From a virus: a stretch of DNA of 64,000 nt. The position numbers were made by a program, and so were the translations under genes. This document shows, one piece after another, positions 1,128 through 60,385 of the stretch. Location of the stretch: the IMG/VR virus record IMGVR_UViG_3300050013_000065, positions 1-64,000 of that record. The stretch is one strand, 5' to 3'. Under the pieces are notes generated by a model. It saw nothing but the letters and a program-made list of their open reading frames with translations. It ran no database searches and was not told the origin of the DNA. How positions within the stretch are numbered: position 1 is the stretch's first letter; each line of letters opens with the position of its first letter.

Positions 1128-1143
1128 CAATGGAGTGACGGAC

Positions 1144-1653
1144 GTGAGCAATAAAGGATACCGAAAAGATCCAGCCGAAAGATTTTGGAAAAAGGTAGAT
1201 TGTCTTGGAGAGGACGAATGCTGGAACTGGTCAGGGGCCTGCACCCACAATGGATACGGAGTCTTGGGTCCTAATCTAAAAGAAAGGCGCGCCCATCGTC
1301 TATCTTGGACTCTTCATTATGGAGAAATTCCAGATGGGGCGCTAGTTTTGCATTCTTGTGACAATAGGAAATGTGTCAACCCTAAACATCTATTTCTCGG
1401 GACTCCGCTGGAAAACACCGAGGATATGTACGCCAAAGGAAGAGAACAAAACCCAGGACCGAGCGTGATTCAGTACGGAGAAAATGTTCCTTCCGCTAAA
1501 ATATCAACGGAAGAAGCTAGACAGATTCGGTCTCTGTATCGTCCTTACCAAAGAGGGTTGACCAAATCTCTTGCCGAAAAGTTTGGTCTATCTCAAGGCC
1601 AAATTCGTGTCATCGCAACAGGCCGTCAGTGGTCACATTTGAAGGAGGAATAG
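1144..1653 (+). CDS. HNH homing endonuclease
   Basis: Residues about 20-100 match the phage HNH_3 type: an ECWNWSG strand, then R(A)HRLSW, then LHSCDNRKCVNPKHL with the paired Cys and catalytic His, then a GTPLENTEDM helix. The C-terminus (about 125-165) is a helix-turn-helix-like DNA-binding tail with ISTEEARQIRSL and LAEKFGLSQGQIRVI. I chose GTG 1144 because TGGAG at 1131-1135 is correctly spaced; an in-frame GTG at 1135 is the alternative. It sits freely between the Cys-rich gene and SSB, as expected for a selfish free-standing nuclease. Confidence 0.85.
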   Translation: MSNKGYRKDPAERFWKKVDCLGEDECWNWSGACTHNGYGVLGPNLKERRAHRLSWTLHYGEIPDGALVLHSCDNRKCVNPKHLFLGTPLENTEDMYAKGREQNPGPSVIQYGENVPSAKISTEEARQIRSLYRPYQRGLTKSLAEKFGLSQGQIRVIATGRQWSHLKEE

Positions 1654-3695: not shown

Positions 3696-3880
3696 TGCCT
3701 ACTTCAACTCCTTTGCCCGTAACTATCTGTGAACTGTGTGGGGCGACAAAAGAACCTACGCAATCTTGGAATCCTGTTTATGGGGACTGGACTTGGTACT
3801 ACGAGCACACTTCCCCGAACAGTTGCATTAAGTACCTGCGGTCTTTAATTGACGACACCAGATCCCGAAGGATTGTTTGA
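3695..3880 (+). CDS. small zinc-finger-like protein, 61 aa
   Basis: Starts in a TAATG overlap. ICELCGATK at residues 11-18 plus a downstream His/Cys pair (YYEHTSPNSCIKYL) resembles a CxxC...H...C metal site. Overlaps the helicase start by ATGATG. Function unknown. Confidence 0.6.
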   Translation: MPTSTPLPVTICELCGATKEPTQSWNPVYGDWTWYYEHTSPNSCIKYLRSLIDDTRSRRIV

Positions 3881-4914
3881 TGCCCACTAAGAAGAAACCA
3901 ATCCCGAAGCAGATTACCCTCAATGAAGAGCAGCAAGCTGTGGTTGACGCGAGGCTCGGAGTATATGCGGTATATGCTGGGCCAGGAAGTGGGAAAACCA
4001 GTGTTGCTGTCCAAAGAGTAGCCGCTCTCGTCCGGGAAGGAGTAGACCCAAACAACCTGCTTGCCTTGTCTTTTACGGCCACAGCGGCGCGCAACCTACG
4101 GGACCGAGTCGAAGCGTTGACCGGTCCTTTGTCCATTACCCGGACAGCGGGGTCTATGACTCTGCACTCCCTAGCCTTAAAGTTTGCGGAGGAAGAAAGA
4201 AATGAATTTCCGTTTGAGCTCGCCGATTTTCCTTTGGCGACTGAGCCAGTTGCTTATCGTCTATCCGCCGAAGCCTCAAAACGCTATGAGATTGACCCCC
4301 GATCTCTACGCTCCGCGATTAGCTTATTTAAGAGGGGTCGCGTTCGTCCTGGTCAGGCCGTCGCTGACGCTGAATCGAAGGGGGACCCCAAGCAACTTCG
4401 ACTAGCCCTGGCCTACAAAGCGTATGACAAGAAGTGCCGGGAGGAAAAGGTTCTCGATTTCGACTCCCTCATGTTCGAGATGGTGGATTTGATGGGCAAG
4501 AAGAAGGCTGTACGAGACCGGTGGCAGTACCAGTTCGTGACCTGCGACGAGGCTCAAGATTGCTGCAAGACTGACTGGGAACTGTTAAAACTGCTATCGG
4601 AGAAATATGGAAACCTATTGGTAGTAGGCGATCCGGGGCAGTCCGTGTTCGGATTTCGGGGAGCATCTCCGAAACTATTTCTGAATATGGAAGAGATGTT
4701 TCCGGGAACTAAGAAGCTATTTCTGGCAACCAATTATCGAAGCACCCGAGAGCTGGTATCGTTCCTGAAAGAGATAGGACCCGTTCCAGAATTGTCCGAG
4801 CGGTTTACTACTCCAAACGACACCGGAGTTCGTCCCGAAATAAAAGGATTCGTATCCCCAGCACTAGAGGCCGAGTTTGTGGTAAAATGTATTCAGGAGA
4901 CACAAAATGTTTAA
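3877..4914 (+). CDS. UvrD/Rep-family helicase, N-terminal part
   Basis: The 345 residues hold the first half of an SF1A 3'-5' helicase: Q motif LNEEQQAVVDA (15-25), Walker A GPGSGKTS (34-41), motif Ia LALSFTATAARNLRDRV, Walker B CDEAQDCC (about 221), motif III VVGDPGQSVFGFRGAS and motif IV TNYRST. The chain stops at the start of domain 2A. Motifs V and VI are in a separate gene at 5599-6423, and four small genes lie between. A palindrome variant lies in it at 4131-4145. It would act in repair or replication if the two halves associate. Confidence 0.9.
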   Translation: MMPTKKKPIPKQITLNEEQQAVVDARLGVYAVYAGPGSGKTSVAVQRVAALVREGVDPNNLLALSFTATAARNLRDRVEALTGPLSITRTAGSMTLHSLALKFAEEERNEFPFELADFPLATEPVAYRLSAEASKRYEIDPRSLRSAISLFKRGRVRPGQAVADAESKGDPKQLRLALAYKAYDKKCREEKVLDFDSLMFEMVDLMGKKKAVRDRWQYQFVTCDEAQDCCKTDWELLKLLSEKYGNLLVVGDPGQSVFGFRGASPKLFLNMEEMFPGTKKLFLATNYRSTRELVSFLKEIGPVPELSERFTTPNDTGVRPEIKGFVSPALEAEFVVKCIQETQNV

Positions 4915-5188
4915 CGAAACCTACAGCTATGGTGATCTTCCACCCTCTTCAATATGGTCCGGTTTGTTTGGCCCTGGTTATTCTCCGTATTTCCACGAAG
5001 ATTGGGTTGACCCCGCTCCGGAAGGGTGGAGAAACTGGATCGGAGATACTCCGCCGGAAGGTAAATTGATCCAGCGGTGGAGAAAAGAGTGGGACAAGCC
5101 AGTAACCGGATATTCCCACGAGATCAGTCCGTACGCCAACGTAAATGGACTCTACTGGAGACTAACCGGAATTGCAAAGGAGACCTAA
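4907..5188 (+). CDS. hypothetical protein, 93 aa, in split helicase
   Basis: ATG 4907 lies in the 3' end of the helicase N-part; its AGGAG is at 4897-4901. Rich in Trp, Tyr, Pro and Gly (SSIWSGLFGPGYSPYFHEDW). Unrelated to helicases. It is the first of four small genes that separate the helicase halves. Confidence 0.7.
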   Translation: MFNETYSYGDLPPSSIWSGLFGPGYSPYFHEDWVDPAPEGWRNWIGDTPPEGKLIQRWRKEWDKPVTGYSHEISPYANVNGLYWRLTGIAKET

Positions 5189-5277
5189 TGGATGATCTTT
5201 CAATGTTCTTAGGAGCAGTAGGACTTCTGATCTTTCTTTTGATCTGGGCTAAGCTGAACGAGAAGGAGGGACGATGA
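5188..5277 (+). CDS. membrane micropeptide, 29 aa
   Basis: ATG 5188 in a TAATGG overlap, ribosome binding site AAAGGAG at 5175-5181. The peptide is almost entirely one transmembrane helix (MFLGAVGLLIFLLIWAKL) with a basic/acidic tail. Possible small membrane or lysis-accessory protein. Confidence 0.5.
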   Translation: MDDLSMFLGAVGLLIFLLIWAKLNEKEGR

Positions 5278-5465
5278 AGTGGACTAACATAAAAGATCAA
5301 CTACCTGAAGAATCGTGGGATAAATTCTTCCTCGGGAGACTATCACAAGAGCACATGTGGACTACACATAGGACGTGTCCGTATGATGTAGTAAGTGGGG
5401 CTTATTTGAATCGTTTTCCGGGCCTGTATACTCATTGGATGCTTATCCCAGAGGAGTCCGAATGA
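5274..5465 (+). CDS. DUF551-like hypothetical protein, 63 aa
   Basis: ATGA overlap, ribosome binding site GAAGGAGG. Starts MKWTNIKDQLPEE and ends with THWMLIPEE, the typical ends of the phage DUF551 family (WxxxxDxLP ... THWMPLP). Function unknown in the family. Confidence 0.6.
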   Translation: MKWTNIKDQLPEESWDKFFLGRLSQEHMWTTHRTCPYDVVSGAYLNRFPGLYTHWMLIPEESE

Positions 5466-5599
5466 ACAACCTAGATTTGTTGTATGAGATCAAAAACCGC
5501 CTCGGGATGCTCGACCTCGGTCTCGCCCTTTGTATCCCTTTGCTTGTTCTTAATATGGCTTTTACTGCCATTCTTCTGAACAGAAAGGAGTCCAGATAA
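5462..5599 (+). CDS. membrane micropeptide, 45 aa
   Basis: ATG 5462 overlaps the previous TGA. The peptide has a helical N-terminus and one transmembrane segment (LGLALCIPLLVLNMAFTAILL) with a basic C-terminus. Its stop codon TAA (5597-5599) is inside the palindrome 5590-5604 and shares its last A with the ATG of the helicase C-part. Confidence 0.55.
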   Translation: MNNLDLLYEIKNRLGMLDLGLALCIPLLVLNMAFTAILLNRKESR

Positions 5600-5604
5600 T
5601 GGAC
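5590..5604. repeat. dispersed palindrome over stop/start junction
   Basis: Exact copy. TAATGGAC in its right half supplies the stop of the upstream micropeptide and the start of the helicase C-part. The upstream AAAGGAG is the ribosome binding site. Confidence 0.9.
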
Positions 5605-6423
5605 AAACCGACTACGGCGATCCTCTGCCGGGTGAATGCCGGACTCAGGCCGTTCGAGCAGGCGTTGTCCGAAGCGGGGGTTCCGTTTCACTATATCAAC
5701 CGTGCGGGGTTCTTTTCTCAACCAGAAATCCAATCAAGCCTCGCTTATCTCGGAGCCTGTTTGTTCCCAGCTAACTATTTGATTTCAGGAATGTTGCGTT
5801 CGGATTTTCACCCTACTAAGTTCCTTCCGAAGACTAAACTAGCCGCCCGATTTAAGGAGTTGAAAGCCAACGACCCCGAAGTGTCTTACTGGACTCTGAT
5901 TACCAAGGAACCTAGAACGCTGGTCGATCCGAGAAACTTGGAAGCTCTGCAACACTTCTCACAGTTCGTCCACTCTCTGTCTAGATACCGAGACCTTCCC
6001 CCCTCTGAGGCCCTCAAACAGGTGCTCGGAGCTTTGAAGGTTGGAGACCATTTTGCTGAGCAAGAAACCATTGACAATGACCCCTTGCAGAACCTGTCTG
6101 ACTTGATAAAAATGGCAGGTAAGTATCGGTCCATCAAAGAGTTCCTGGATTTTACACGAAGAGTTGCCGCCGCCTCTCGGGCTAAGAAGGGGGTGGCCCT
6201 CGGAACAATCCACAGCGCCAAGGGCCTTCAGTGGCACTCGGTTTTCCTGGTAAGCTGCCAAGAGGGTATTTTACCTCATTCCAAATCTACTGATCTAGAA
6301 GGCGAACGGAACTGCTTTTTTGTGGCGTGTTCACGGGCCGAACAGAAATTGACTGTAACGTACAGTGGACAGCCAAGCTCATTTGTGATACCATACTTGC
6401 AGGTTAATAAGGAGGAAGCATGA
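5599..6423 (+). CDS. UvrD/Rep-family helicase, C-terminal part
   Basis: The 274 residues continue where the protein at 3877-4914 stops: AILCRVNAGLRPFEQAL with GVPFHYI (start of 2A), then motif V GTIHSAKGLQWHSVFLVSCQEGILPH (about 201) and motif VI ERNCFFVACSRAEQKLTVTYS with the arginine finger. There is no Walker A of its own. The start is fixed by AAAGGAG at 5584-5590 and the palindrome. Together the two parts make a complete helicase of about 620 residues. Confidence 0.88.
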   Translation: MDKPTTAILCRVNAGLRPFEQALSEAGVPFHYINRAGFFSQPEIQSSLAYLGACLFPANYLISGMLRSDFHPTKFLPKTKLAARFKELKANDPEVSYWTLITKEPRTLVDPRNLEALQHFSQFVHSLSRYRDLPPSEALKQVLGALKVGDHFAEQETIDNDPLQNLSDLIKMAGKYRSIKEFLDFTRRVAAASRAKKGVALGTIHSAKGLQWHSVFLVSCQEGILPHSKSTDLEGERNCFFVACSRAEQKLTVTYSGQPSSFVIPYLQVNKEEA

Positions 6424-6893
6424 GATTCTGGACGCACAAAATGACAGATGAATCAGCACCGATTGAACCCACGTCTCTCGAACAAGCTCTCAAAGAGTAC
6501 CCAGACAAGGTTCAGGTTCTAGAAACCCCAACGGACCCGCCTCCTGACATGTCCACAAAGCCAAAGGACATTGTTGAGTATTGCTTTGGGTATGCCTGCC
6601 CGAAAAAGCACGTATTTGACCTATTTGACTCAATTACACCGGCTGGATATGATACCCAAAAAGCATGTCCAAAATGTGGGGAGTTGGCGAAACCATCGGT
6701 AATCCGAAAAATAGCAGAGCCGGTGTGGCGTAAGCTTATTTCAGACATGTCCTCGGAAATAAACGATGAATCAGAGTTTAAGTGGCGCACAACTTCCCTA
6801 GTTGGTTATAGAAAAATTACGCTGTGGAGCCGTTATGAGTTTGTCCATTATCTGGACCCAGTTAAGCCTAGACCAAGACGGAGGAAGAAATGA
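6420..6893 (+). CDS. zinc-ribbon protein, paralog of 19889-20338
   Basis: 157 residues. A CPKKH ... CPKCG metal site (about 60-88) is followed by a strand segment and a conserved Trp. The tail YEFVHYLDPV is encoded by the palindrome 6843-6857, and the C-terminus is basic (RPRRRKK). The protein at 19889-20338 has the same order: CANGH ... CLTCG, VIKRTFEPY, and DEFVHYLDED over another palindrome. Function unknown. Confidence 0.75.
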   Translation: MRFWTHKMTDESAPIEPTSLEQALKEYPDKVQVLETPTDPPPDMSTKPKDIVEYCFGYACPKKHVFDLFDSITPAGYDTQKACPKCGELAKPSVIRKIAEPVWRKLISDMSSEINDESEFKWRTTSLVGYRKITLWSRYEFVHYLDPVKPRPRRRKK

Positions 6894-8077
6894 GTGTACT
6901 CTACACCAGCGCTTCTGGAAGACAAGTAACCCACAGTTCCTCTAGCGCGCTTGATACTTTTAGACTGTGCCGACGTAAATTCCGCTTGTCCCGCATCGAC
7001 GGATGGAAGCAGAAGGCCCGCAAAGCTAGTTTGGAAATTGGAAAGTGCTTGGAATCCGCCCTCCAGTTCTACCACGATAACGGCCTAAAGGACGGCGACT
7101 TTGAATCAGAGTGGCAGCGACTGTGGCTAAAATTTGCCAATATTGACCTCACCTACACGGACCAGGAGAAGGACTGGAAGAACGTCTATGATCTTGGAAA
7201 GGACTGGGCACGGCTATACCCCATTCTCCTCCCCACATTTCCAATCCGAAACCCCAAGTGGCAGCTTCAGTTCCTCAAGGAATTGTGGCCTAGAGATCCC
7301 TTGTATGGCGGTCTCAGCTTCATGGGATACACCGATATGCTGTCTACGTTAGAAGACGGAACCCGACTAATCATCGACGTGAAGACAGCTGCAAAGGCAC
7401 TCCCAGTAACCTCGGATTTGATGGCTCTCGATGGCCAACTCCGAAAGTACGCATGGGTAAGTGGGATAAACCAAGTCAGTTTCTTAAACTTCGTAAAATG
7501 CGACCCTAGTTCCTTTCGTAAAGGAGTGGACGTAACTCTACTAGAGGATACCCGAGATTGGAAGGCTGGGCAACCCCTGGTCGTTTTCAAAGCTGAAGAG
7601 AAGCAGTTCGGAGCTTCTGAAACTCCTCTCCTGCTGCTTACCCTCGGAACTGCCGAAACTGTCCGGATAATGGACGAAGAGTTAGACATCATCAAGGGGA
7701 AGGGAAGTACGGAAGCCAAGGCGGCGGTAGTCTCTTCTTATCTCTCAGACGGTCGGCTGTGTGTAGTTGAAAGATCGGGGGTCACTAAGGTCAAAATCCA
7801 ATTCGTTCGTGGTACAATACCAGAAGAAGACTTGCCAGAGATCGGGCAACAGATCGGGCAGGATATGATCGCTCTCAAATCCGCGTCTGATACCAACTCC
7901 TTCTTCAAGGATGGTGGTGTGCGATTTCCAAATGCCATTTGTGGGTGGTGCGAATTTTTGCCCATTTGCAACCGAAATGACCAGCGTCGGGACGAGACCT
8001 TAGTTCAAATCAAACCCGCCAACGCCACTGAAGAGAAAGACTGGCTCACCGAATTAGAAAGCGAGGACGGTGAATGA
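6890..8077 (+). CDS. RecB-like PD-(D/E)XK nuclease
   Basis: 395 residues. The N-terminus SSSSALDTFRLCRRKFRLSR is the usual entry helix of the RecB/Cas4 fold. The active site follows: GYTDMLS (Asp), then LIIDVKTA (D-x-K), then LDGQLRKYAW (QxxxY). The C-terminus carries Cys residues (AICGWCEFLPIC) that may hold an iron-sulfur cluster together with LCRR. The gene follows the helicase and zinc protein with ATGA overlap, suggesting a helicase-nuclease end-processing role. Palindrome variant at 7661-7675. Confidence 0.88.
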   Translation: MSVLYTSASGRQVTHSSSSALDTFRLCRRKFRLSRIDGWKQKARKASLEIGKCLESALQFYHDNGLKDGDFESEWQRLWLKFANIDLTYTDQEKDWKNVYDLGKDWARLYPILLPTFPIRNPKWQLQFLKELWPRDPLYGGLSFMGYTDMLSTLEDGTRLIIDVKTAAKALPVTSDLMALDGQLRKYAWVSGINQVSFLNFVKCDPSSFRKGVDVTLLEDTRDWKAGQPLVVFKAEEKQFGASETPLLLLTLGTAETVRIMDEELDIIKGKGSTEAKAAVVSSYLSDGRLCVVERSGVTKVKIQFVRGTIPEEDLPEIGQQIGQDMIALKSASDTNSFFKDGGVRFPNAICGWCEFLPICNRNDQRRDETLVQIKPANATEEKDWLTELESEDGE

Positions 8078-12766: not shown

Positions 12767-13644
12767 TGACTAAAATTTGTTCGCTATGCCGCAAGGAAAA
12801 ATCTCTAGAGGATTTTCACCGGGACAGTCAAGGCAAGTACGGAAGAAAGTCTAAATGCAAGGACTGCATCGCACAATACATGCTGAGCAGAAAGAATATC
12901 CCCGGAGTGCGCGAGTCCATATATCGCAATAGCAGAGCATACGACCGCAGAAACCCAGAAGCTAGAATGGCAAATTCGGCAAGAGAAAGATCAAAAAGGA
13001 ACGGTACTCTTTGTACTATAGCTAAAAACGAAATAGTAATTCCTGACTTGTGCCCGATATTGGGCATTCCTCTCAAACGTGGAAATCGATCTTCACACGA
13101 TGACGCTCCTAGTTTGGATAGAATTATTCCCGAGGAGGGGTACGTAGCAGGCAACGTGAACGTAGTATCCTACCGGGCCAATCGTCTGAAAAATAATGGA
13201 ACGCCAGAGGAGCACCGTCTTATTGCCGCTTGGATGTCAAATTCAGGGTTTACAAGTCCAACCAAAAGTGAACAGATTTTAGAAAACTCCCAAAAGGAGA
13301 TGTTTAACGCCTCCCGACAACGGGCAAGGAGACTGGGTCTTAATTTTGGAATACAAATAGGAGACATAAAAATCCCACGCGTATGTCCTATATTAGGAAT
13401 TCCACTAGAACCAGGAAAGGGTAGAGGTAGCAGACACGAGGGATCTCCAACACTAGACAGGACTGATCCAACAAAGGGATACATTCAAGGAAACATTTCT
13501 GTTATTTCTTATCGGGCTAATCGCATCAAAAACGACGGCACCGCCGAGGAGCATTTAAAGATTGCGGATTGGATGGACAGTATGTTACAATCCAAAGTGT
13601 TGGATATGAACCATGAAGAGGAGGACCCAAATGGGTTTGAATGA
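12766..13644 (+). CDS. putative homing endonuclease, duplicated domain
   Basis: 292 residues. N-terminal zinc module CSLCRKEKSLEDFHRD ... CKDC. Two copies of one domain follow (about 85-155 and 205-275), each with CPILGIPL, a His, SLDRI or TLDRT, GYV..GN, SYRANRLKN..GT and EEH. The protein at 59333-60385 has the same architecture. Inserted between the primase and the next gene (TAATG overlap), like a free-standing selfish nuclease. The catalytic class is not certain; a His-Me finger (HNH-like) fold is my inference. Confidence 0.7.
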   Translation: MTKICSLCRKEKSLEDFHRDSQGKYGRKSKCKDCIAQYMLSRKNIPGVRESIYRNSRAYDRRNPEARMANSARERSKRNGTLCTIAKNEIVIPDLCPILGIPLKRGNRSSHDDAPSLDRIIPEEGYVAGNVNVVSYRANRLKNNGTPEEHRLIAAWMSNSGFTSPTKSEQILENSQKEMFNASRQRARRLGLNFGIQIGDIKIPRVCPILGIPLEPGKGRGSRHEGSPTLDRTDPTKGYIQGNISVISYRANRIKNDGTAEEHLKIADWMDSMLQSKVLDMNHEEEDPNGFE

Positions 13645-23679: not shown

Positions 23680-24672
23680 GTGGAACAACGGAAAGAACAA
23701 CAGAAGAAATATTTTGTTTACCTAATCACGAACCAGATAAACAAAAAAGTATACGTGGGATTTACCTCGAATTGGAAGAAGAGGTGGAAGGAGCATAATT
23801 TAGAGTCCCAGCGAAATCGAAATGATCAGAGGAATCGGCATCTGTACCATGCTATGCGGATGTATGGTCGCGAGAATTTTTCGTTTTGTCTTCTCTGTTC
23901 TGTAGATGATGAAAAGGAGGCTCTACGTTTAGAACAATACTATATTGAACAGTACGGTTCTAAAAATCCGGACAAGGGGTACAACATGACAGCGGGCGGG
24001 GACGGGGTGCGCGTACTGAGAGGAGATAGCCTAGAGAGAATGAGAAAAGCTGTTTCAGAGAGGATGTCTGTCCCTGAAAATACTCCGAATTACCGAGAAG
24101 ATATTTCGACAGAAGAGATTGTGGAATTGTATGTTATAGAGGGGTTGAACACCGTGGCTATCGGAAAGAAACTTGGAATATATCCGGGTCTAGTTAGTTC
24201 CCGTTTAAAAAGGAAAGGAGTAAAAAGAAGAGGACGCCGGATAGAAATAAATGTTGCTGAAGTGCTCCGCCTTTACGAGATTAAGAAGACGGCGGCGGAA
24301 ATAGGAGAAATATTTGGAGTTAGTAAATACAAAATATTATCTGTCCTAAAAGAACAGGGGATAGACAGGAGGAGGTCCGGGGCCAGAAAAACTACGGAGG
24401 GGAGAAAGGAGAAAAGATGCCCGGGGTGCCAAAACATAAAACTTCTCTCCTTCTTCAATAAGAACAAAAGCTCGCACGATGGGTATTCGAGTTTGTGTAA
24501 GCAGTGTATTTCAGACAGAAACAAGATGAAGTTACGGACTAAAAAGGAGATTGCTCCGGAGCCATGTTCAAGTACCGGAGGAACGTTGGGTCCTTCAGAC
24601 GTTCTTGGGGCTGAAGATTCTTCATCGCCTTCGCTATGTACTTCTTTCTCGTCTGAAGGGTCAGAGGCATAA
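23680..24672 (+). CDS. GIY-YIG homing endonuclease
   Basis: 330 residues. GIY-YIG domain at 10-105 (YFVYLITNQINKKVYVGFTS, KKRWKEH, EQYYIEQYG ... GYNMTAGGDG). Two helix-turn-helix repeats follow (LNTVAIGKKLGIYPGLVSSR and KTAAEIGEIFGVSKYKI), then the zinc module CPGCQNIKLLSFFNKNKSSHDG ... CKQC. GTG 23680 after AAAAGGAG. Its last 134 nt overlap the 3' end of the leftward gene at 24539, so the C-terminal tail is likely junk read into that gene. Confidence 0.85.
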   Translation: MEQRKEQQKKYFVYLITNQINKKVYVGFTSNWKKRWKEHNLESQRNRNDQRNRHLYHAMRMYGRENFSFCLLCSVDDEKEALRLEQYYIEQYGSKNPDKGYNMTAGGDGVRVLRGDSLERMRKAVSERMSVPENTPNYREDISTEEIVELYVIEGLNTVAIGKKLGIYPGLVSSRLKRKGVKRRGRRIEINVAEVLRLYEIKKTAAEIGEIFGVSKYKILSVLKEQGIDRRRSGARKTTEGRKEKRCPGCQNIKLLSFFNKNKSSHDGYSSLCKQCISDRNKMKLRTKKEIAPEPCSSTGGTLGPSDVLGAEDSSSPSLCTSFSSEGSEA

Positions 24673-59332: not shown

Positions 59333-60385
59333 TCAATCCGATGCCTCGGGGGTTTGTCCATTATCTGGACGGTTTAGTTGGGTGTCTATCCAATCGGCTA
59401 TTTGGCGGTGTTCGGCGGCGGTGCCCACGTTCTTGATTCTGTTTGCTCGCCAACTGATTACCGCAACATTTCCGGGAACGTATCCGAGTTCGGGGATGAT
59501 CTTGTCTAGAGTCGGCGAACTGTCTTGCATCTTTCCAAGACCGGGCCTGATAGGTATTCCGAGAATGGGACAAATACTGGGAATGAGAAAATCCTCTTTT
59601 GTGATAGAGAACGGAAATCCACCTCTCTTTGCCCGCCCTTTCGCGCTAGCGGTAAGCCGGTACAAATGCTTTTTAACAGCCGGAGTTGTCTCAAATACAA
59701 AAGAAGAAATACCTTCGATCCAGTTGGCAATCAGCCGGTGTTCTTTAGCCGTCCCGTCAGTCTTTAAAGTATTCGCCCGGTAGCTTATTACTGCGACATT
59801 TTCCCGAATGTATCCCAACTCAGGAACAATTCTATCCAAACTTGGAGATTCATCGTGATGAACTCCGGTCCCCCGTTCTAACGGTATCCCCAGAATAGGG
59901 CACAAGCGGGGAATGACCACATCTTCCTCCACCAAAGAAAAGGGTATATTATTCTCTTTGGCGCGGTTTTTAGCGGCATAAAAAATAGAGTACGAGGGTC
60001 TCTTCCGTCGCTTATCTTTCTGTTCTTCTAGAATGCGAGGCTTATTTTCCTCGTAAAAATCTTTACTTCTCGCAATATTTTTATCTCGGTTTATGACGTG
60101 ACGAGATCGACGATATTGCTTTATTTCTTCTGAGTGGGTTTCGTTATACGCTTTTTCTGCTTTGCGAATAGAGTCTCTATTTTTTAGATTATATTCTCGA
60201 TTTTTAGCGAGTATTTCTTCTTTGTTCTCCGCGTAGTACTCTCTTCTTCTCCGGGAAAAGCAGGATTTACAGTCGTTTCGAAACCCATCTTTCTTGCTTA
60301 AGTCTTTGTAAAACTCTGTTAACGGTTTAACTTCGCCGCACTTAGAGCAGCGTTTCATCATGGCTTCTTCTGTCATTTGGCTCAT
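59333..60385 (-). CDS. putative homing endonuclease, duplicated domain
   Basis: About 350 residues; same architecture as 12766-13644. Zinc module CSKCGEVKPLTEFYKDLSKKDG ... CKSC, a long basic helical linker, then two copies of CPILGIP..G, SLDRI/TLDKI, GYV..N, SYRAN/SWRAN, GTA.EH..IA.W. Start choice is uncertain (60427, 60385 or 60361). The C-terminus RPDNGQ is encoded by palindrome 59356-59370. Inserted between portal and the next gene. Confidence 0.7.
   Translation of the reverse strand: MSQMTEEAMMKRCSKCGEVKPLTEFYKDLSKKDGFRNDCKSCFSRRRREYYAENKEEILAKNREYNLKNRDSIRKAEKAYNETHSEEIKQYRRSRHVINRDKNIARSKDFYEENKPRILEEQKDKRRKRPSYSIFYAAKNRAKENNIPFSLVEEDVVIPRLCPILGIPLERGTGVHHDESPSLDRIVPELGYIRENVAVISYRANTLKTDGTAKEHRLIANWIEGISSFVFETTPAVKKHLYRLTASAKGRAKRGGFPFSITKEDFLIPSICPILGIPIRPGLGKMQDSSPTLDKIIPELGYVPGNVAVISWRANRIKNVGTAAEHRQIADWIDTQLNRPDNGQTPEASD

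What the first reader, a model, noticed from the sequence alone, without database searches (positions are those of the whole stretch)
3877..6423. UvrD-type helicase split into two genes by a four-gene cassette
Motifs Q to IV are in 3877-4914 and motifs V-VI in 5599-6423. The break falls cleanly between domain 1A/1B and 2A, and both parts have their own ribosome binding sites. The four genes between encode an aromatic-rich protein, two membrane micropeptides and a DUF551-like protein, with no intron core or intein ends. A helicase made from two chains would be unusual.
Basis: partly seen in the sequence, partly recalled or inferred. Interest (0 to 1): 0.7.

Follow-up and report, generated by a model that had tools for sequence, protein, structure and literature searches.

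The report
Phage helicase encoded as two chains
A group of uncultivated phages makes a common DNA-unwinding motor as two separate proteins, cut inside one of its engine domains; the cut is old and shared by 13 phage lineages, and the genes between the halves arrived separately, probably helped by selfish DNA-cutting genes.

Summary
The split is real, but the cassette did not cause it. N-half (ATG 3880-4914) and C-half (5599-6423) match PcrA profile positions 4-336 and 347-611 with no overlap. Together they carry every motif. The break is not between 1A/1B and 2A: both structure comparisons place it at UvrD residue 343, about 60 residues inside the 2A RecA fold. Each chain therefore holds part of 2A, which suggests obligate assembly.

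Thirteen phage lineages (17 records) share this break, and each searched record has no other UvrD helicase. Close relatives L024 and L048 are unsplit, as were all further relatives in which both parts could be seen. The gap varies from none (L010: stop and start overlap, TAATG) to 2.3 kb. Its genes come from a shared pool, joined by overlapping start/stop codons and a repeated start-site linker. In L014/L015 the gap is exactly one intact HNH/endonuclease-VII-type homing-endonuclease-like gene; L017 and L020 keep deleted remnants; L001 and L003 hold other endonucleases. No intron or intein was found.

Best reading: a two-chain SF1A helicase, a "genes-in-pieces" case like Aeh1 nrdA or T4 topoisomerase, working beside a PD-(D/E)XK nuclease. 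Known kind, new target. Assembly and activity are inferred, not shown.

The parts
3880..4914 (+). Helicase chain N (344 aa): domains 1A and 1B plus the first ~60 residues of 2A; motifs Q to IV
   Evidence: Pfam UvrD-helicase 8e-51; PcrA profile 4-336; AF2 pLDDT 90.6; aligned to PcrA 7-346 (2pjr), Z 34.1
4834..4914 (+). 3' end of chain N where similarity switches from L010-like to L001-like (recombination boundary, position approximate)
   Evidence: blastn segments; AU tests
4907..5188 (+). Gap gene 1, 93 aa, aromatic-rich; family also in the gaps of L001, L013, L016, L017, L025
   Evidence: clustering
5188..5277 (+). Gap gene 2, 29 aa, one membrane-span-like stretch; family also in L004 gap
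5274..5465 (+). Gap gene 3, 63 aa, DUF551-like; family also in L012 and L016 gaps
5462..5599 (+). Gap gene 4, 45 aa, one membrane-span-like stretch
5585..5605 (+). Start-site linker AAGGAGTCCAGATAATGGACA, shared with the C-half start of L010, L016, L020 and others
5453..5464 (+). Second copy of the linker (GGAGTCCGAATG) before gap gene 4
5599..6423 (+). Helicase chain C (274 aa): rest of 2A and all of 2B; motifs IVa, V, VI
   Evidence: Pfam UvrD_C 2e-25; PcrA profile 347-611; AF2 pLDDT 83.3; aligned to UvrD 343-647 (3lfu), Z 18.2
6420..6893 (+). 157 aa ORF between helicase chain C and nuclease; no family above threshold
6890..8077 (+). PD-(D/E)XK (RecB/Cas4-type) nuclease gene, the conserved neighbour of split and unsplit relatives
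   Evidence: Pfam PDDEXK_1 3e-10; neighbourhood

Best explanation
This is a naturally two-chain SF1A (UvrD/PcrA-type) phage helicase. Chain N carries 1A, 1B and the start of 2A. Chain C carries the rest of 2A, including the DNA-contacting motif IVa, plus all of 2B and motifs V-VI. Shown here: the break lies at one homologous site, inside the 2A RecA fold, in 13 phage lineages; no UvrD-helicase (PF00580) copy other than the split one was found in the split-clade records searched; and close relatives are unsplit. Inferred: the two chains reassemble by completing the shared 2A sheet and then act as one 3'-5' motor, next to the PD-(D/E)XK nuclease whose gene follows, probably in DNA-end processing or recombination. 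Inferred origin: a free-standing homing endonuclease gene entered the linker of the single helicase gene (the state kept in L014), then decayed or was lost (L017, L020, L010). The overlapping stop-start junction then became a landing site for small genes that share a start-site linker. The four genes in this window are one such later filling.
For: Same break in 13 lineages; one UvrD helicase per record among 20 records, 17 split and 3 unsplit. Unsplit relatives L024, L026, L028, L048, and 68 of 71 further viral loci, the other three running off contig ends. Split rows need one change on both trees. All catalytic residues invariant across 15-16 sequences. Both halves look under purifying selection: C, dN 0.077 / dS 0.59-0.72; N, dN 0.23 / dS about 1.8. 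Both fold confidently and map side by side on PcrA/UvrD; confidence falls in each chain's 2A part, as expected of fragments of one domain. L014 gap is exactly one endonuclease (phrog_3322 7e-35; phrog_374, HNH, 9e-31), overlapping both halves by 4 nt. Deleted remnants in L017 and L020. 50 of 58 junctions overlap. Linker at 1.38/kb in gaps against 0.057/kb elsewhere. Split phage enzymes are known to reassemble and work (PMC2988022).
Against: No binding or activity was measured. The window's own gap holds no endonuclease or remnant. Phages of this group carry several such endonucleases elsewhere, so one in the gap could have come after the fission. L010, sister to the window on the N tree, has no insert, which fits a plain stop-start fission equally well. 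Support for a single origin is modest once L048 is added (N 62/48, C 81/88). N- and C-half distances barely correlate across split phages (r 0.12), though correlation inside the N-half is also weak (0.37), so general mosaicism explains part of this.
Confidence: 0.72

Rival explanations
1. Fission came first, by point or frameshift mutations that made an overlapping stop-start (TAATG, as in L010). Homing endonucleases and small genes invaded the junction later. The enzyme is still two-chain, so this rival disputes only the origin.
For: L010 has no insert, and chain C's ribosome-binding site lies in chain N's last codons (AAGGAGTCCATTTAATGG). Several other N-halves also end in IKE(S). The window gap has no endonuclease.
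Against: Endonucleases or their remnants occupy the gap in 5 of 13 lineages; in L014 one fits the site exactly, and L017 and L020 keep remnants directly after the N stop.
Confidence: 0.4
2. The halves are joined after all, by RNA splicing, protein trans-splicing, frameshifting or ribosome bypassing.
For: Many phage genes with endonucleases inside are spliced (PMC10448857).
Against: No Rfam intron in the window or 14 loci. Chains end within about 10 residues of the unsplit alignment, leaving no room for intein parts. The gap holds stop codons and up to eight intact genes, each with its own start.
Confidence: 0.03
3. The two products work separately, for example chain N as an ATPase and chain C as a DNA-binding regulator, and do not rebuild a helicase.
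For: N- and C-terminal fragments of Plasmodium UvrD were each reported active (PMC3503981). N and C halves have different histories in the window.
Against: Residues that work only across the 1A/2A cleft, including motifs V and VI, stay invariant in the separate chain C, and each chain holds only part of the 2A fold.
Confidence: 0.1
4. The split helicase is a decaying gene.
For: Splitting by insertion can break a helicase gene (Clostridium plasmids, PMC4824171).
Against: Open frames and catalytic residues kept in 13 lineages, with 46-90% identity to the window halves; dN/dS well below 1.
Confidence: 0.03

Closest known systems
Aeromonas phage Aeh1 nrdA-a / mobE / nrdA-b (genes-in-pieces ribonucleotide reductase)
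   Same: Free-standing HNH endonuclease between two halves of an enzyme gene (the L014 state); no splicing; unsplit relatives
   Different: Different enzyme; here most members no longer carry the endonuclease, and the gap is filled with changing small genes. Function is proven there (PMC2988022), not here.
T4 topoisomerase large subunit split by mobA (genes 39 and 60) and gene 43A/43B DNA polymerase of phages 25 and 44RR
   Same: Phage replication enzyme in two chains, endonuclease or other insert at the break (PMC2988022)
   Different: Not a helicase; not a variable small-gene island
Fractured genes with split inteins, including a gp41 helicase (Dassa 2009, from memory; paper not held)
   Same: Fractured phage replication gene with an endonuclease between the parts
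   Different: Those parts trans-splice through split inteins; there is no room for inteins here
Single-chain UvrD/PcrA/Rep helicases
   Same: All motifs and the domain order
   Different: One chain; NCBIfam PcrA, UvrD and Rep cut-offs are far from reached (171 against 911 bits for PcrA)
Start-Associated Sequences of cluster K mycobacteriophages (PMC3203893)
   Same: Short conserved sequence around the ribosome-binding site in front of many small genes
   Different: Different sequence; here concentrated in the gap between the helicase halves

Membership tests
UvrD/Rep-type SF1A helicase | N- and C-terminal helicase domains | tested here: met
   PF00580 8e-51 and PF13361 2e-25, both above cut-off, in two ORFs
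UvrD/Rep-type SF1A helicase | Catalytic motifs Q, I, II, III, IV, IVa, V, VI intact | tested here: met
   Invariant columns incl. Q18, K39, D223 E224 Q226 D227, Q254, R260, R287 in N; R11 N13, H205 K208 G209, E236, R246 in C
UvrD/Rep-type SF1A helicase | Single polypeptide | tested here: not met
   Two ORFs in 13 lineages
PcrA, UvrD or Rep proper | Curated equivalog score | tested here: not met
   171.5 and 83.7 bits against a PcrA cut-off of 911
Homing-endonuclease genes-in-pieces enzyme | Endonuclease gene between the halves | tested here: inconclusive
   Intact in L014/L015, remnants in L017 and L020, other endonucleases in L001 and L003; none in the window gap
Homing-endonuclease genes-in-pieces enzyme | Unsplit relatives with the same protein | tested here: met
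   L024, L048, L026, L028 and others
Homing-endonuclease genes-in-pieces enzyme | Halves reassemble into an active enzyme | not testable with these tools
   Needs co-purification and assay
Intron-interrupted gene | Group I or II intron between the halves | tested here: not met
   0 Rfam matches at the gathering threshold in window and 14 loci
Split-intein fractured gene | Intein N- and C-parts at the break | tested here: not met
   Chains end within about 10 residues of the unsplit alignment
AddAB/AdnAB-type helicase-nuclease | UvrD-type motor plus PD-(D/E)XK nuclease as one complex | tested here: inconclusive
   Nuclease is a neighbour of split and unsplit relatives; complex not testable

The most novel reading that the evidence does not exclude
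The break in the motor has become a standing landing site: small genes bounded by a shared ~20-nt start-site linker are swapped in and out between chains N and C by recombination while start-stop coupling is kept, and the two chains reassort between phages as interchangeable subunits of a split helicase that assembles through its 2A domain.
Probability: 0.3. Interest if true: 0.7.

Novelty: new variant of a known kind. Interest (0 to 1): 0.5.

Why it matters
If the chains assemble, this would be a natural split SF1A helicase, cut inside one of its two RecA-like motor domains. I found no report of one in the papers searched. It would give a ready-made way to test how the 1A and 2A cores couple ATP use to movement, and a two-part helicase for engineering. 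It extends genes-in-pieces from reductases, polymerases and topoisomerases to a DNA motor. Across 13 lineages it also shows stages from intact endonuclease to remnant to replaced or empty gap, and shows such a break acting as a gene-insertion site.

Tried and rejected
Intron or intein rejoining: Rfam negative, no room for inteins. Cassette as cause: rejected by L010, L014 and the varied gaps. A second, intact UvrD copy: none found. Chance or assembly error: rejected by 13 lineages. Reassortment of halves as a general rule: N-C distance correlation is 0.12 in split phages against 0.86 in fused ones, but correlation inside the N-half is also low (0.37), so only the window's own case (AU tests) is firm. 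Promoter and terminator scan of the region: no more sites than in shuffles, so uninformative. The phages and GTDB collections gave no relative of the split form. The nuclease had no sequence match in the PDB. The paper on fractured genes and the original Aeh1 nrdA paper are not held. No complex model could be made, because joined sequences are not accepted by the structure tool.

Full report
Observation. The window holds an intact N-half (ATG 3880-4914, 344 aa) and C-half (5599-6423, 274 aa) of a UvrD-type helicase, with four small ORFs between them. Pfam and NCBIfam place the halves side by side: UvrD-helicase 1-271 and UvrD_C 73-348, and PcrA profile 4-336 and 347-611. The likely N start is ATG 3880, because GAAGGA lies upstream at a good spacing; the TTG at 3877 is not needed.

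Where the break lies. Models of the two halves (pLDDT 90.6 and 83.3) align to UvrD 4-343 (3lfu, Z 29.7) and 343-647 (3lfu, Z 18.2), and to PcrA up to 346 and from 347. In the standard domain scheme (from memory: E. coli UvrD 2A = 281-377 and 551-647) residue 343 lies about 60 residues inside 2A. PMC3503981 likewise places the 1A/2A border next to motif IV, and motif IV (NYRS) sits about 56 residues before the end of chain N. Model confidence falls at residues 311-344 of chain N and at 1-40 and 200-274 of chain C, which are the 2A parts, while 1A/1B and 2B are mostly above 90. So each chain holds part of the same RecA fold. That makes assembly by strand and helix complementation the natural mechanism; this is inference.

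Relatives. Searches of IMG/VR gave 13 lineages (17 records) with the identical break: the window, L001, L003, L004, L010, L012, L013, L014=L015, L016, L017, L019, L020-L023 and L025. Each of the 20 records searched has a single UvrD helicase. L024, L026 and L028 are unsplit (L026 is one ORF, 5022-6872), and so are L048 and the other viral loci in which both parts are visible (68 of 71). In the trees the split rows need one change (N 96/94 with the first row set and 62/48 after changing the outside rows; C 44/18 and 81/88). A single origin is favoured but not proven.

The gap. It ranges from -1 nt (L010, TAATG) to 2,260 nt (L003), and 50 of 58 junctions between successive genes overlap. In the window all five junctions overlap, so chain N, four small genes and chain C form one chain of possible translational coupling. 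Gap genes fall into families shared in different combinations. Two families found in gaps lie downstream of chain C in L010, and one of these also in L013, L017 and L020. A linker (consensus AAGGAGTCCRRATAATGGACAA) precedes many of these starts; the motif used occurs 17 times in 12.3 kb of gap against 10 times in 176 kb elsewhere, while ordinary GGAG-start sites are enriched only 2.4-fold. In L010 the same linker is the tail of chain N itself.

Endonucleases. In L014/L015 the whole gap is one 252-codon HNH/endonuclease-VII-type gene (phrog_3322 7e-35, phrog_374 9e-31). Its GTG overlaps chain N's TGA and its TGA overlaps chain C's GTG. L017 and L020 carry internally deleted remnants right after chain N. 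The L020 remnant ends in FVVKCIKEGL, a copy of the window/L001 type of chain N tail (FVVKCIQE), which looks like a recombination scar. L001 has another HNH gene and L003 a GIY-YIG gene in the gap; L004 has a GIY-YIG gene just before chain N. These phages carry several such genes elsewhere, so the link to the origin of the split is suggestive only.

Halves as modules. The window's chain N groups with L010 (99/98) and its chain C with L001 (99/96). Chain N data reject WIN+L001 (p 4e-5) and chain C data reject WIN+L010 (p 5e-6). So this phage pairs halves from two lineages, with the switch near 4834. Wider reassortment is suggested but not separable from general mosaicism.

Selection. Chain C window-L001: dN 0.077, dS 0.59-0.72. 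Chain N L013-L025: dN 0.23, dS about 1.8. Both ratios are well below 1, as expected if both products are used. Most other pairs are too diverged for dS to be estimated.

Neighbour. A PD-(D/E)XK nuclease follows the helicase wherever the contig extends far enough. It directly abuts or overlaps the helicase gene in the unsplit L048, L028, L050, L124 and L026, and in most split phages it is separated by small genes. The ancestral unit looks like a two-gene helicase-nuclease pair, now three cistrons.

Comparison. The closest known cases are the split nrdA of Aeh1, T4 genes 39/60 and gene 43A/43B; the nrdA and gene 43 parts are known to give active enzyme (review PMC2988022). Nothing on a split UvrD-type phage helicase was found in the papers searched; the only split-helicase hit is an insertion-disrupted plasmid gene (PMC4824171). 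The library is partial, so this is not proof of absence. A new variant of a known kind.

Noticed in passing
window 12961-13584 (+) and 59375-60001 (-): Two separate tandem duplications of the C-terminal module of the same endonuclease family that sits between the helicase halves in L014 (four copies in all).
   Followed up: partly
window 23707-23967: GIY-YIG endonuclease ORF (PF01541 6e-18), related to the one in the L003 gap.
   Followed up: partly
window 1135-1653: HNH_3 homing endonuclease gene (E 1e-13) just before the SSB gene.
   Followed up: partly
window 6890-8077: PD-(D/E)XK nuclease with a C-terminal cysteine pair (CGWCEFLPIC), conserved beside both split and unsplit helicases; no PDB sequence match.
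   Followed up: partly
L020 5982-6300: Endonuclease remnant ending in a copy of another lineage's helicase chain N tail (FVVKCIKEGL), apparently a recombination scar.
   Followed up: partly
window 5453 and 5585; L001, L003, L016, L017, L025 gaps: Repeated start-site linker AAGGAGTCCRRATAATGGACAA in front of small genes, similar in kind to start-associated sequences of cluster K mycobacteriophages.
   Followed up: yes
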